Below are positions 25,647-29,830 of a DNA stretch of 42,155 nucleotides, in pieces. The notes under the pieces are model-generated. The model had not been told where the DNA came from, made no database searches, and worked only from the letters and a program-made list of their open reading frames with translations. The stretch lies in NCBI GenBank assembly GCA_946611605.1, contig CAMODU010000006.1:1-42155 (forward strand), in the 5' to 3' direction. The stretch comes from an uncultured bacterium. GTDB taxonomy: Bacteria > Bacillota_I > Bacilli_A > RF39 > UBA660. A program made the translations under genes and the position numbers. Within the stretch, counting starts at the first letter, position 1; every line of letters starts with the position of its first letter.

Positions 25647-25666
25647 AATTCCTTGGAAGTGATCAT

Positions 25667-26665
25667 ATGACAAAGGATTTTAAAGGAACAAAAGTAAATG
25701 TCGATATAGCATTAATAATTGTTAATAATATAGAAAAGCTTTCTAACTTCATTACTGACAGTAATAATATTAATATTAATTCAATAGATAATGATATTAA
25801 AAAGATTAAACAAAGTAAAACATTTTGGATAGGTCCATATTCTCAATCCTTTTATGAATATAATAAAGAAATAATAGAAGATATATTACCTGTCATAAGT
25901 ATATATACTTTTTTAAATAATATTGTAGATATTAAGACAAATGATCTAAGACAAGATTTTAGAGAATTTGTAAATTATATTTATAGTCATAAAGAATCAA
26001 TAGATAATATATGTTCTTTATTAGAAGCAATTAAAGAATTAGGAATAGCTTATGTTGTACTTGATGAAAATAATAAGTTTGAATATATTATAGATTTATA
26101 TTTAAATGATTATTCACGTGATTTTGGATTCGGAGAAAATATTACAATTATTCCTACATATGAAAAAAATCATATTAAGTATTATTTAGATGGATCCAAT
26201 TATATCATTCCATTAACATCTGAACTTGGAAGAATAAATATTTATTCTAGTTTTCCAAATGAAATAGTAGTTAATAATTTATTATTTGATAAAAGTGTAT
26301 TACCTAAGTCTAAAAAAACTGAAGATATTATAGATGTTATTGTTGAAAAACATAAAGAGTGTAATAAGAGCAATACATATCTAAGAGAAGGAATTGATTT
26401 ATCATTTAGTATAGAAGATTTAAATCAACAACTAGAAAGTACTTTAAGTGTAGTAGAAAGTTTATCTAATATTCATGATAAAGATACTATATTAAATTAT
26501 TTATATTCAATTAAACATACTATATCTAGATTAAAAGATTTGGATAAAACTAATGAAGAATCTATTATATTTAATGAAAATAATTCAGTAAATCAAGAAG
26601 TATACAATTCTGAGAAGGATGCTTTTGTAAAAAGAAGACTAAACTCTAGTTACGATTGGTGTTAA
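25667..26665 (+). CDS. Hypothetical protein of unknown family
   Basis: A 332-residue cytoplasmic-looking protein with GGAAGTGA before the ATG. No signal peptide or membrane helix is seen. The middle (about 120-215) has alternating strands (AYVVLDENNKFEYIIDLYLN, IIPTYEKNHIKYYLDG), while the C-terminal third (about 245-290) is probably helical (SIEDLNQQLESTLSVVESLS). I do not recognise a family and see no catalytic motif. It is a single-gene unit between tRNA-Arg and the dockerin protease, with its own promoter and terminator. Confidence 0.6.
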   Translation: MTKDFKGTKVNVDIALIIVNNIEKLSNFITDSNNININSIDNDIKKIKQSKTFWIGPYSQSFYEYNKEIIEDILPVISIYTFLNNIVDIKTNDLRQDFREFVNYIYSHKESIDNICSLLEAIKELGIAYVVLDENNKFEYIIDLYLNDYSRDFGFGENITIIPTYEKNHIKYYLDGSNYIIPLTSELGRINIYSSFPNEIVVNNLLFDKSVLPKSKKTEDIIDVIVEKHKECNKSNTYLREGIDLSFSIEDLNQQLESTLSVVESLSNIHDKDTILNYLYSIKHTISRLKDLDKTNEESIIFNENNSVNQEVYNSEKDAFVKRRLNSSYDWC

Positions 26666-26693
26666 AACAACTATTTTATATAGTTGTTTTATT
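26664..26693 (+). terminator. Terminator after the gene at 25667
   Basis: AAAACAACTA (26664-26673) pairs with TAGTTGTTTT (26681-26690), starting in the stop codon. Confidence 0.8.
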
Positions 26694-26736: not shown

Positions 26737-26745
26737 TGATATAAT
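26737..26745 (+). promoter_or_regulatory. Extended -10 promoter of the dockerin-protease operon
   Basis: TGATATAAT is a full TGnTATAAT extended -10, with no clear -35. Confidence 0.6.
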
Positions 26746-26761
26746 TATGATAGGTGATAAT

Positions 26762-28858
26762 ATGAAGAATAAAATATTCATATTAATCTTGTTATTATTA
26801 ATTATACCTAATGCTAAAGCATTAGTTTCTTGTGATTATACAGATGAATATAAAGCATATATGGAATTGTCTCCAGAGGAAAGAAAAGATGCTATTCAAC
26901 CAATTATGTGTAAGGAATCATATGCTAAAGATACTTTATCTTCAACATATAGAAATATGAATAGTTTATTAAAAGCTTCTGCATCTGATAAAACTTATAA
27001 TGGATTAACTGCTGGATTTGTTACTCCGGTTAAGAATCAACAATATGAAGGTACTTGTTGGGCTTTCTCATCAGTAGCATCAATCGAGTCAAATGCATTA
27101 AAGAATGGATTAGGTACATATGATTTTTCTGAATTACATATGGTTTATTCTTTAATAAGCGGAGCATTTACTGATGAAGGTGGGAAAAACGGAAGATATA
27201 ATACTAATACTAATGGTGGAACTATATTTTATGGTGCATCATATTACTTTAATAAAAATAAACAATTATTAGAAAGTGAAATGCCATATCCTGATCGTGT
27301 TATTAGTCCTATACATTCATCTAATTATAATGAAGGTAGAAAGATAATAACATTAGATAACTTCTATATATCTAATCTTAATTCCAATAATGTATGTAGA
27401 ACATCTGAAATATCTTTAATAAAGAATAAGATTATAGAATTAGGAGCTGTACAAGCAACTGTATATATGGATGAAAACTTATTAGTAGATAATAAATACT
27501 ATATGTCTACAACTTCTAATAGTACTTCACTAAATCATGCAGTTACTATAGTTGGATGGGATGATACTATATCTAAATCTAATTTCCCTGGTGCAACTAA
27601 AGATGGTGCATGGATTGTTAAGAATTCATGGGGTGAAGATTGGGGAGACAATGGTTATTACTATGTATCTTATAATGATAATTTTATATGTACTATGATA
27701 GGATCATATGAAGGTGTTAGTACAACAACATATGATTACTCATATAGTGCATCTGATTTAATTGGTGCAGATGTTGTATATAATCCAAGAACTTATATAG
27801 CATCTAAATTTGAAAAACAAAGTATTGGTAAAGAACAAATAAAGAAGGTAAGTGTATCACTTCCTACATCAGGAACATATAAAGTATATTTATCTCATAG
27901 TGGATATACAAATCAAAATACATGGGAATTATTATATGAAGGTACATCTACTCAAGAATTAGGTATTAAATCATTTTATACTGATAAGATAATAGATGAT
28001 GATTATTACATAATAGTTGATTATGAAGCAACTAGTTCATTTACAGCCTTAACTATGTGTAAGTTAGGTGCTACCGAACATTTAGAATATAAACCTGGTT
28101 ATAACTTTATTGCATCTAATTCATTAGATTGGCAAGATATGGCTTTAAGATCAACTCCATGTGAACCATTAGTATATGTTTATACTGATACATATGAAGA
28201 ACCTGAAGCAGATATAACATTAGATAATGTTAATGTAACTAATACTAATAATGTAGTTATAGATATTACAAATACATCTAACAGTGAATTTACTTATAAA
28301 GTATTCTTAGGAGAAGAAGATGTTACATCTCATTTTACAATTAGTACAAACGATGGAAAAGTAACATTAGTTCCAGATAATACTATATCAGGAACATTTA
28401 AATTCCATTTATACTCAGGTAGTAATGATGAATTTATTAGTTTCACATTAAATGAAGAAATAATACCTCAAGAACCAAATATAAGTGTTGATGATGAATA
28501 TATTTATATTAAAAAATCTCCAACAGGATATTTTAAGAATACTGATTTAGAATCAAGTATTAATGTATTTAATACTAATTATAGTATCGTTAATAATGGT
28601 AATATACCTGTTACTAATTTATATACAGGATCTAGATTTGTTACAACCAATAATGAATATAAAATAATTATCATGGGTGATTCTACATCAGATGGAATTA
28701 TAGATTCAGGAGATTTATTAAAGATGGTTAAATACTTAAAAGGAACTGATATAACTAGAGAACAATATGTAGCTGCTGATGTTAATCGTGATTCAGTCAT
28801 GGATTCAGGAGATTTATTAAAAGTAGTTAAAGTATTGAAAGGCTCTGCTAGTTTCTAG
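26762..28858 (+). CDS. Secreted papain-like (C1A) cysteine protease with lectin-like region and C-terminal dockerin
   Basis: A 698-residue protein. The ATG at 26762 follows AGGTGAT; upstream in-frame starts lie across the terminator and promoter. The signal peptide is IFILILLLLIIPNAKA. The C1A domain (about 75-315) has the oxyanion Gln in KNQQYEGTCWAFSS, nucleophile Cys99, His259 in LNHAVTIVGWDD and Asn288 in IVKNSWGEDWGDNGYY. Next is a beta-rich region (about 325-480) like the lectin-like domain found in bacterial C1 peptidases, and Ig-like segments (about 485-630). The end is a type I dockerin: two calcium-loop repeats, DSTSDGIIDSGD at 640 and DVNRDSVMDSGD at 673, each followed by a LLK helix. 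It should be docked extracellularly to a cohesin-bearing partner. The neighbouring anchored protein is the obvious candidate. Confidence 0.85.
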   Translation: MKNKIFILILLLLIIPNAKALVSCDYTDEYKAYMELSPEERKDAIQPIMCKESYAKDTLSSTYRNMNSLLKASASDKTYNGLTAGFVTPVKNQQYEGTCWAFSSVASIESNALKNGLGTYDFSELHMVYSLISGAFTDEGGKNGRYNTNTNGGTIFYGASYYFNKNKQLLESEMPYPDRVISPIHSSNYNEGRKIITLDNFYISNLNSNNVCRTSEISLIKNKIIELGAVQATVYMDENLLVDNKYYMSTTSNSTSLNHAVTIVGWDDTISKSNFPGATKDGAWIVKNSWGEDWGDNGYYYVSYNDNFICTMIGSYEGVSTTTYDYSYSASDLIGADVVYNPRTYIASKFEKQSIGKEQIKKVSVSLPTSGTYKVYLSHSGYTNQNTWELLYEGTSTQELGIKSFYTDKIIDDDYYIIVDYEATSSFTALTMCKLGATEHLEYKPGYNFIASNSLDWQDMALRSTPCEPLVYVYTDTYEEPEADITLDNVNVTNTNNVVIDITNTSNSEFTYKVFLGEEDVTSHFTISTNDGKVTLVPDNTISGTFKFHLYSGSNDEFISFTLNEEIIPQEPNISVDDEYIYIKKSPTGYFKNTDLESSINVFNTNYSIVNNGNIPVTNLYTGSRFVTTNNEYKIIIMGDSTSDGIIDSGDLLKMVKYLKGTDITREQYVAADVNRDSVMDSGDLLKVVKVLKGSASF

Positions 28859-28869
28859 AAGGTGATAAT

Positions 28870-29787
28870 ATGAAAAAGATAGTAAGAATTATATTTTTAA
28901 TAACAATTATGTTTATAAGTACTAATGTATATGCTGCATCTTTAAATGTATCAGCTTCTAAGACAAGTGCATATAAAGGTGATAAAGTAACAGTTACAGT
29001 TAAAGTATATGCGGGTACATGGAACTTAAGTGTATCTGGCCCAGGTGTAAGTGATAAAATTGTAGGATTTGATATGGATGGTAATATTAATACTACTAAA
29101 ACATATACTGTTGATACATCAACAGTAGGAACTAAAACTATAGTAGTAACTGGTGATTATACTGATTATGTTACAGAAGATACAACAAGAGATGTTAATA
29201 AAACAATTTCTATTACTGTAAGTGAAGCACCAACTCCAACTCCAACACCAAGTCCAACACCAAGTCCAACACCAAGTCCAACTCCAACACCAACTACTAA
29301 ACCTAGTTCAACACCAAGTTCTCAACCTGCTAATCAAGGTACAACTGTTGTTACTCCTCAACCTGTAGAAGAACAACCAACTGAGCAACCAACAGAACCA
29401 ATTACTCAACCAGTTGAGATTAAGATTAATAATATTAAAGTAGTTGGATATGATATAGATTTTAACAAAGATGTACATGATTATAATATATTTGTATCAT
29501 CTGATGTAAAAGAACTATATGTTATAGTTGATGGTGAAGATGTCGAAGTAATAAATGATGGTATAGTTGAAATAGATAATAAAGGCTATTTCGATGTAAC
29601 AGTTAAAAAAGATAATGTTGAACTTACATATACATTTATCCTAATAAGAGGAGATGTATTAGGAGTAGAAGAAGTTAAAGATACATCTAAAGGATTAAAG
29701 ATAGCATTATTAATATTATCATTAGTAACATTATTGGTATCTGGTGTATCTCTATATTATTTTGTATTAAGAAAGAAGAGTATTTAA
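28870..29787 (+). CDS. Membrane-anchored surface protein: Ig-like domain, Pro/Thr stalk, cadherin-like sandwich
   Basis: A 305-residue protein 11 bp after the dockerin protease, with AAGGTGAT upstream. It has a signal peptide (residues 1-22, ending VYA), then a beta-sandwich of about 95 residues (SASKTSAYKGDKVTVTVKVY opening, as in cohesins and CARDB/Ig-like domains), a Pro-Thr-Ser stalk (about 119-165), a cadherin-like beta-sandwich (about 185-262; INNIKVVGYDIDFNKDVHDY is typical) and a C-terminal membrane helix with basic tail (FVLRKKSI). There is no LPxTG. The position suggests that the first domain could be the receptor for the dockerin; this is inference, because the cohesin family cannot be confirmed by eye. 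Confidence 0.75.
   Translation: MKKIVRIIFLITIMFISTNVYAASLNVSASKTSAYKGDKVTVTVKVYAGTWNLSVSGPGVSDKIVGFDMDGNINTTKTYTVDTSTVGTKTIVVTGDYTDYVTEDTTRDVNKTISITVSEAPTPTPTPSPTPSPTPSPTPTPTTKPSSTPSSQPANQGTTVVTPQPVEEQPTEQPTEPITQPVEIKINNIKVVGYDIDFNKDVHDYNIFVSSDVKELYVIVDGEDVEVINDGIVEIDNKGYFDVTVKKDNVELTYTFILIRGDVLGVEEVKDTSKGLKIALLILSLVTLLVSGVSLYYFVLRKKSI
29230..29296 (+). repeat. In-frame Pro-Thr/Pro-Ser tandem repeat
   Basis: Repeats built on CCAACACCAAGT (12 bp, encoding Pro-Thr-Pro-Ser) and the shorter unit CCAACT. They code for a flexible stalk. The unit is a multiple of three, so copy-number change would alter stalk length without frameshift. Confidence 0.85.
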
Positions 29788-29800
29788 TTACTCTTCTTTT
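29772..29800 (+). terminator. Terminator after the surface-protein operon
   Basis: AAAGAAGAGTA (29772-29782) pairs with TACTCTTCTTT (29789-29799). The stop codon is in the loop. Confidence 0.85.
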
Positions 29801-29830
29801 TAGTTTATAATTATAAAAGAGGTGTTTAAT

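What the first reader, a model, noticed from the sequence alone, without database searches (positions are those of the whole stretch)
26737..29787. Minimal dockerin-protease and anchored-receptor pair
A secreted C1A protease ends in a two-repeat type I dockerin with matching Ser-Gly at the recognition positions of both repeats, and the next gene, 11 bp on and in the same operon, encodes a signal-peptide protein with a cohesin-like Ig sandwich, a Pro-Thr stalk, a cadherin-like sandwich and a membrane anchor without LPxTG. Cellulosome-type docking is known mainly for polysaccharide enzymes; here it would display a protease on the membrane of a small-genome bacterium. This is the best candidate for an undescribed system in the window.
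Basis: partly seen in the sequence, partly recalled or inferred. Interest (0 to 1): 0.75.

Follow-up and report, generated by a model that had tools for sequence, protein, structure and literature searches.

The report
Dockerin protease with paired membrane receptor
In this tiny uncultured gut-type bacterium a secreted protease carries a plug (a dockerin) and the next gene makes a membrane-anchored socket; comparison with about 100 such enzyme-socket gene pairs shows that plug and socket types change together, so the cells probably use a private plug-and-socket code to hang enzymes on their surface.

Summary
Window 26762-28858 encodes a Cwp84-like C1A protease ending in a type I dockerin; 11 bp on, 28870-29787 encodes signal peptide / compact beta-sandwich / Pro-Thr stalk / cadherin-like domain / membrane anchor. 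Hairpins flank the two genes. It is the only dockerin found in the genome, which has no cohesin above cut-off. The pair is not isolated: 108 of 145 family genomes have dockerins, usually one per genome and mostly on glucosaminidase-like wall enzymes, and about 100 of 112 C-terminal dockerin genes examined are followed directly by such a receptor. Receptor first domains fall into canonical cohesins plus three compact classes that Pfam does not call cohesins. Dockerin motif and receptor class are tightly coupled (partial Mantel r 0.58, p 0.001; 8 of 8 phylogenetically independent contrasts), also where gene order is reversed or the genes lie apart, and between the two pairs of one genome. The most likely reading is calcium-dependent one-to-one docking that displays the enzyme on the membrane; binding itself is unshown, and AlphaFold2 gave no docking. 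Dockerin proteases and membrane-anchored single cohesins are known separately. New, as far as I could search, are the family-wide cassette, the compact receptor classes and the pairing code.

The parts
26663..26691 (+). terminator-like hairpin upstream of the two-gene unit
   Evidence: RNA fold -11.4 kcal/mol, z -3.9
26762..28858 (+). secreted C1A (papain-family) protease with C-terminal dockerin, 698 aa
   Evidence: Pfam PF00112 1.7e-24 and PF00404; closest solved relative C. difficile cell-surface cysteine protease 4ci7, 1.2e-23 over residues 60-395
26762..26821 (+). signal peptide of the protease (MKNKIFILILLLLIIPNAKA)
   Evidence: sequence, by eye
27014..27697 (+). C1A catalytic domain, residues 85-312; Cys99, His259, Asn288
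   Evidence: Pfam match range, residues located
28676..28855 (+). type I dockerin with two complete calcium loops, Ser-Gly at positions 10-11 of both; helix motif DLLKMVKYLKG / DLLKVVKVLKG
   Evidence: PF00404 match, class logo
28870..29787 (+). membrane-anchored receptor, 305 aa
   Evidence: ORF with RBS AAGGTGAT; conserved next to the dockerin gene in relatives
28936..29223 (+). receptor domain 1: compact beta-sandwich of the 'AWN' class, inferred dockerin receptor
   Evidence: orthologous domain folds as an 8-strand sandwich with pLDDT mostly 85-95; class assignment 122 bits against 37 or less for the other classes
29224..29415 (+). Pro-Thr-Ser stalk
   Evidence: sequence
29419..29655 (+). 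cadherin-like membrane-proximal domain
   Evidence: aligned with relatives; PF12733 matched in some relatives, not in the window protein itself
29692..29766 (+). C-terminal transmembrane anchor followed by the short basic tail RKKSI; no LPxTG
   Evidence: sequence
29770..29801 (+). terminator-like hairpin overlapping the receptor stop codon
   Evidence: pattern scan, RNA fold -15.5 kcal/mol, z -5.1

Best explanation
The two genes form a bicistronic surface-display cassette. Both proteins are exported by Sec. The receptor stays in the membrane by its C-terminal helix and holds its first beta-sandwich outward on a cadherin-like domain and a Pro-Thr stalk. The protease's calcium-loaded dockerin binds that first domain one to one, so the cysteine protease is held at the cell surface without sortase, S-layer or wall-binding repeats. 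The receptor domain is a compact relative of cohesin, one of at least three compact classes (here 'AWN', 'SSN' and 'IEG') that replace the canonical cohesin in this lineage. Each class goes with its own dockerin motif, so several such pairs can work side by side in one cell. Shown: gene architecture, conserved pairing, receptor-class/dockerin-motif coupling. Inferred: physical binding, calcium dependence, surface display of an active protease.
For: Only one dockerin in the genome, and no cohesin above the Pfam cut-off. Synteny: the pair sits between housekeeping genes that are about 67-93% identical in a congener while protease and receptor are only 45-47% identical. About 100 of 112 C-terminal dockerin genes with room downstream have the receptor as next gene, among loci that favour the best dockerin matches. 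Coupling of receptor class with dockerin helix class: cohesin 45 of 58 with Q at the key position; SSN 20 of 20 with DY(V)xIKN-like motifs; AWN 13 of 13 with S(A/G)D plus R or VK; Fisher p 5e-16, uncorrected for relatedness. Partial Mantel dockerin~domain 1 given the cadherin domain is 0.58 (p 0.001), against 0.22 for dockerin~cadherin given domain 1; 0.64 within cohesins alone. Independent contrasts on a tree of the rest of the receptor: 8 of 8 for SSN (p 0.008); 5.7 of 7 same, none opposite, for cohesin (p 0.03). Two-pair genomes (G001, G003, G004, G005) hold two pairs with different codes, each obeying the family-wide rule. Where the Y-type dockerin gene has no receptor downstream (reversed order in G025, G174, G103; apart in G018, G075), an SSN receptor was found in all five, against 0 of 9 genomes with other dockerins at E<1e-9. 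C1A relatives without a dockerin carry their own anchor or wall-binding end instead.
Against: No binding data. AlphaFold2 on a fused dockerin-receptor chain folded domain 1 but not the dockerin, so there is no modelled interface. Domain 1 is not a Pfam cohesin. Dockerin and domain 1 lie next to each other on the DNA in most cassettes, so recombination could move them together; the reversed and unlinked cases argue against this as the sole cause but are few. The genome is a 93% complete assembly, so another receptor could be missing. Classes were defined after looking at the data.
Confidence: 0.8

Rival explanations
1. The dockerin binds a different, unlinked cohesin-like protein of the same cell (contig C13: signal peptide, weak cohesin-like domain, TM), and the adjacent gene is a co-transcribed surface protein of other function.
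For: A PF00963 match of 22.8 bits, just under the cut-off of 24.1, exists at C13, and relatives of it occur in the genus.
Against: The C13-type domain scores near zero with all four receptor-class profiles; a relative of it occurs in a genome that also has two proper pairs. It would not explain why the adjacent receptor's class tracks the dockerin motif.
Confidence: 0.07
2. The neighbour is a membrane-bound inhibitor or chaperone of the C1A protease (chagasin-like, Ig fold) rather than a dockerin receptor.
For: Chagasin-type inhibitors of papain-family proteases have an Ig-like fold (general knowledge); some cohesin-type receptors match Inhibitor_I42 below the cut-off.
Against: No I42 match for the window receptor at E<=1; the same domain classes stand beside glucosaminidase-like and M6 enzymes; the domain class tracks the dockerin motif, while the same C1A protease family occurs with both AWN and SSN receptors.
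Confidence: 0.04
3. Dockerin and receptor domain merely travel together by recombination because they lie side by side on the DNA; the coupling reflects linkage, not binding.
For: In most cassettes the two modules are about 100 bp apart.
Against: The rule also holds when the receptor gene lies upstream of the enzyme gene (G025, G174, G103) or elsewhere (G018, G075), and the genes stay paired over many genera.
Confidence: 0.08

Closest known systems
Cellulosomal cohesin-dockerin docking (type I)
   Same: calcium-loop dockerin on the enzyme, beta-sandwich partner on an anchor; many family members have canonical cohesins
   Different: one enzyme and one receptor per cassette, no multi-cohesin scaffoldin seen; the main cargo is a wall hydrolase or protease; three receptor classes are not Pfam cohesins
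Single-cohesin C-terminal TM proteins in Lachnoclostridium sp. MSJ-17 (PMC11557425)
   Same: one cohesin on a membrane anchor
   Different: there they could serve up to 39 dockerin proteins; no dedicated adjacent partner is described in the passages read
Dockerin-bearing peptidases: R. flavefaciens cysteine peptidase-like module (PMC3573020), C. thermocellum subtilisin-like protease (cited there), Limousia mucinolysome peptidases (PMC12997984)
   Same: dockerin on a protease
   Different: they belong to multi-enzyme systems with scaffoldins; here there is a dedicated receptor
C. perfringens cohesin/dockerin-bearing glycosidases (compared in PMC12997984)
   Same: non-cellulosomal, pairwise use of cohesin and dockerin
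   Different: both modules sit on enzymes; no dedicated membrane receptor in the same operon
Clostridioides difficile cell-surface cysteine protease Cwp84 (4ci7)
   Same: C1A domain plus part of the following domain align (1.2e-23)
   Different: Cwp84 attaches by cell-wall-binding repeats (general knowledge); here a dockerin

Membership tests
Type I dockerin | PF00404 match above the gathering score | tested here: met
   32.2 bits against 22.9
Type I dockerin | two F-hand calcium loops with Asp/Asn ligands | tested here: met
   DSTSDGIIDSGD and DVNRDSVMDSGD
Type I dockerin | calcium-dependent binding to a cohesin-type partner | not testable with these tools
   no binding assay; AlphaFold2 fusion gave no interface
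Cohesin (PF00963) | Pfam Cohesin profile match of receptor domain 1 | tested here: not met
   no match at E<=1 in the window receptor; none of 39 compact-class members at E<=0.01, against 10 of 12 sampled cohesin-class members
Cohesin (PF00963) | homology to cohesins at profile-profile level | tested here: met
   hhalign of AWN class against the cohesin class of this lineage: probability 96%, E 1e-9; a supportive but short alignment of similar sandwiches
Cohesin (PF00963) | cohesin fold | tested here: inconclusive
   8-strand sandwich; cohesin 2vo8 at Z 7.5 among many Ig-like folds
Cellulosome | scaffoldin with several cohesins binding many dockerin enzymes | tested here: not met
   one dockerin and no cohesin above cut-off in a 93% complete genome
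C1A papain-family protease | Cys/His/Asn catalytic set in PF00112 | tested here: met
   Cys99, His259, Asn288; 1.7e-24
Chagasin-type inhibitor (I42) | PF09394 match | tested here: not met
   absent from families at E<=1 for the receptor
Sortase-anchored surface protein | LPxTG-like motif before the TM | tested here: not met
   no [LNI]PxTG in the receptor

The most novel reading that the evidence does not exclude
The compact AWN, SSN and IEG domains are a set of dockerin receptors distinct from classical cohesins that have repeatedly replaced the cohesin domain on otherwise similar anchors, each with its own dockerin code. Small-genome gut bacteria thereby have several insulated enzyme-display channels in one cell.
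Probability: 0.55. Interest if true: 0.75.

Novelty: new variant of a known kind. Interest (0 to 1): 0.62.

Why it matters
If true, cohesin-dockerin logic is not mainly a cellulosome device but a general anchoring system in a large, mostly uncultured group of small-genome bacteria, used for wall hydrolases and proteases. About a hundred natural pairs with at least four coupled motif/receptor classes would give a dataset for reading the specificity code and a source of orthogonal binding pairs. It also explains how secreted enzymes without sortase or wall-binding motifs could be held on these cells.

Tried and rejected
AlphaFold2 on the naturally in-frame neighbour pair of L172 (two TAA stops read as Gln, signal peptide acting as linker): domain 1 well folded, dockerin region below pLDDT 50, so no interface. 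AlphaFold2 of the full window protease with 3 sequences: mean pLDDT 37, unusable. Foldseek and VIA-align on domain 1: generic Ig-like matches only (CARDB, complement macroglobulin domains), not diagnostic. The genome-contig scan for receptor relatives found only two, both the same locus in congeners. The first quick tree gave an underpowered contrast test (5 pairs, p 0.06); a careful tree gave 7-8. In the SSN contrast I counted as 'Y type' only dockerins outside the IEG class, whose helix reads DYLAVLR; this was decided after seeing the classes. Literature searches for this group with dockerin or cohesin found no description, in an open-access library only.

Full report
What is there. The window (26% GC, contig C6 of a 1.0 Mb, 47-contig, 93% complete genome) holds a two-gene unit. 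The first gene, 26762-28858, encodes a 698-residue protein with a signal peptide, a papain-family C1A domain (PF00112, 1.7e-24) and a C-terminal type I dockerin (PF00404, 32.2 bits, cut-off 22.9). The nearest solved structure is a C. difficile cell-surface cysteine protease, 4ci7 (E 1.2e-23, residues 60-395, so beyond the catalytic domain). Cys99, His259 and Asn288 are in place. The second gene, 28870-29787, begins 11 bp after the stop with its own ribosome-binding site and encodes signal peptide, beta-sandwich (23-118), Pro-Thr stalk, cadherin-like domain and a C-terminal membrane helix ending RKKSI, without LPxTG. Hairpins precede the unit (-11.4 kcal/mol, z -3.9) and overlap its end (-15.5, z -5.1), so it is probably its own transcript.

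Is the dockerin isolated in this genome? Yes: one PF00404 match. PF00963 (cohesin) gives a single sub-threshold match on another contig (22.8 bits, cut-off 24.1), a signal-peptide/TM protein beside gapA that fits none of the receptor classes described below.

Relatives. In two congeners (L172 = G005, L171 = G004; records CAMPCD010000003.1 and JAIKYM010000094.1) the pair sits at the same place between housekeeping genes. In L172 the flanking housekeeping genes are about 67-93% identical to the window's, while protease and receptor are 45-47% identical, so the pair evolves fast. Two further congeners (G001, G003) have C1A-dockerin proteases with an adjacent receptor at other loci.

The wider system. 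Dockerins occur in 108 of 145 genomes of the family over the cut-off, usually one per genome. The usual bearer is a glucosaminidase-like protein (S. aureus Atl glucosaminidase 6fxo, 1e-15 for a representative; Pfam itself does not flag that domain). Of 30 best loci, 29 have a signal-peptide/beta-sandwich/cadherin-like/TM gene directly downstream. After extending to about 110 loci, about 100 of 112 C-terminal dockerin genes with room downstream do (counted from the lists, leaving out L109, L138 and L141 whose next gene is something else). Three of the exceptions have the receptor directly upstream. The loci were chosen from the best dockerin matches, so this is not a random sample. Similar pairs occur in other families of the class with 2-3 Mb genomes.

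Receptor classes. The first domains sort into canonical cohesins (10 of 12 sampled match PF00963) and three compact classes, named here after sequence features: SSN, AWN and IEG. None of 39 compact members matches PF00963 at E<=0.01. Profile-profile comparison links all four classes (hhalign probability 96-98%), so they are probably diverged relatives of one sandwich family. The window receptor is AWN (122 bits, other classes 37 or less). A model of the L172 orthologue shows an 8-strand sandwich at high confidence, whose nearest solved folds are generic Ig-like domains, with a C. perfringens cohesin at Z 7.5 among them: not diagnostic.

The coupling. Dockerin helix motifs go with the receptor class: cohesin with DLLxVQKHIL (45 of 58 have Q), SSN with DYVxIKNxIM (20 of 20), AWN with S(A/G)DLLxMRQHLL (10) or the window-type VK form (3), IEG with LR-YY forms. 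The association is far from chance (Fisher 5e-16, uncorrected). Correcting for relatedness: the partial correlation of dockerin distance with domain-1 distance, given the cadherin domain of the same receptor, is 0.58 (p 0.001), against 0.22 for the reverse control. Phylogenetically independent contrasts give 8 of 8 for SSN/Y (p 0.008) and no contrary case for cohesin/Q (p 0.03).

Internal controls. G005 and G004 each hold a glucosaminidase-like/cohesin/QK pair plus the protease/AWN/VK pair. G001 holds cohesin/QK plus protease/SSN/WN. G003 holds an AWN/RL pair plus protease/SSN/KN. The code therefore follows the receptor, not the enzyme or the species. Because dockerin and domain 1 are neighbours on the DNA, joint recombination could mimic this. 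The reversed-order (G025, G174, G103) and separated (G018, G075) cases still show SSN receptors with Y-type dockerins, 5 of 5, against 0 of 9 genomes with other dockerins at E<1e-9; class assignment is by 53-72 against 12 bits or less for the receptors scored, G103 not among them.

Function. Among C1A relatives in the family, those without a dockerin end in an NPxTG-like motif plus TM (G089, G129) or in repeats that look wall-binding (G169) (by eye). The dockerin-receptor pair thus looks like a split version of a surface anchor. Calcium dependence and binding are inferred from dockerin biology. What the protease cuts is unknown; maturation of surface proteins, as for Cwp84, and digestion of gut protein are both possible.

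What is known. Dockerin-bearing peptidases exist in R. flavefaciens and C. thermocellum (PMC3573020) and in Limousia mucinolysomes (PMC12997984). Membrane-anchored single cohesins have been noted in Lachnoclostridium (PMC11557425). I found no description of a one-enzyme/one-receptor cassette, of the compact receptor classes, or of dockerins in this lineage, in an open-access library only.

Limits. No binding was shown; two structure jobs gave no interface. The genomes are metagenome assemblies. Classes were defined post hoc. The taxon is known only through record titles of congeners ('Bacilli bacterium', 'uncultured bacterium').

Noticed in passing
L002 (own genome C13, 24938-28168): Signal-peptide/TM protein with a sub-threshold cohesin-like domain and a long cytosolic tail beside gapA; similar proteins in congeners (L162 and, with a cadherin-like part, L011, L012). 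No dockerin partner gene next to it.
   Followed up: partly
L063, L238, L239: Dockerin proteins of about 950-1060 aa (one with an M6 immune-inhibitor-A peptidase match) in reversed order: SSN receptor gene first, enzyme second.
   Followed up: partly
L176, L177 (G089, G129): C1A protease relatives that end in NPKTG or NPQTG plus a TM helix instead of a dockerin.
   Followed up: no
L021 (G028): One polypeptide holding dockerin, cohesin-like domain, cadherin-like domain and TM.
   Followed up: no
L135, L150 (G008): Another dockerin motif (NLSDVSKxYNYYKG); in L150 it is followed by a receptor outside the four classes, in a genome with many dockerin matches including GH5-like enzymes with N-terminal dockerins (L140, L146).
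   Followed up: no
window 25649-26665: Gene upstream of the pair, no Pfam match, only 32% identical to its syntenic counterpart in L172 although housekeeping neighbours are about 67-93%: fast-evolving, function unknown.
   Followed up: no
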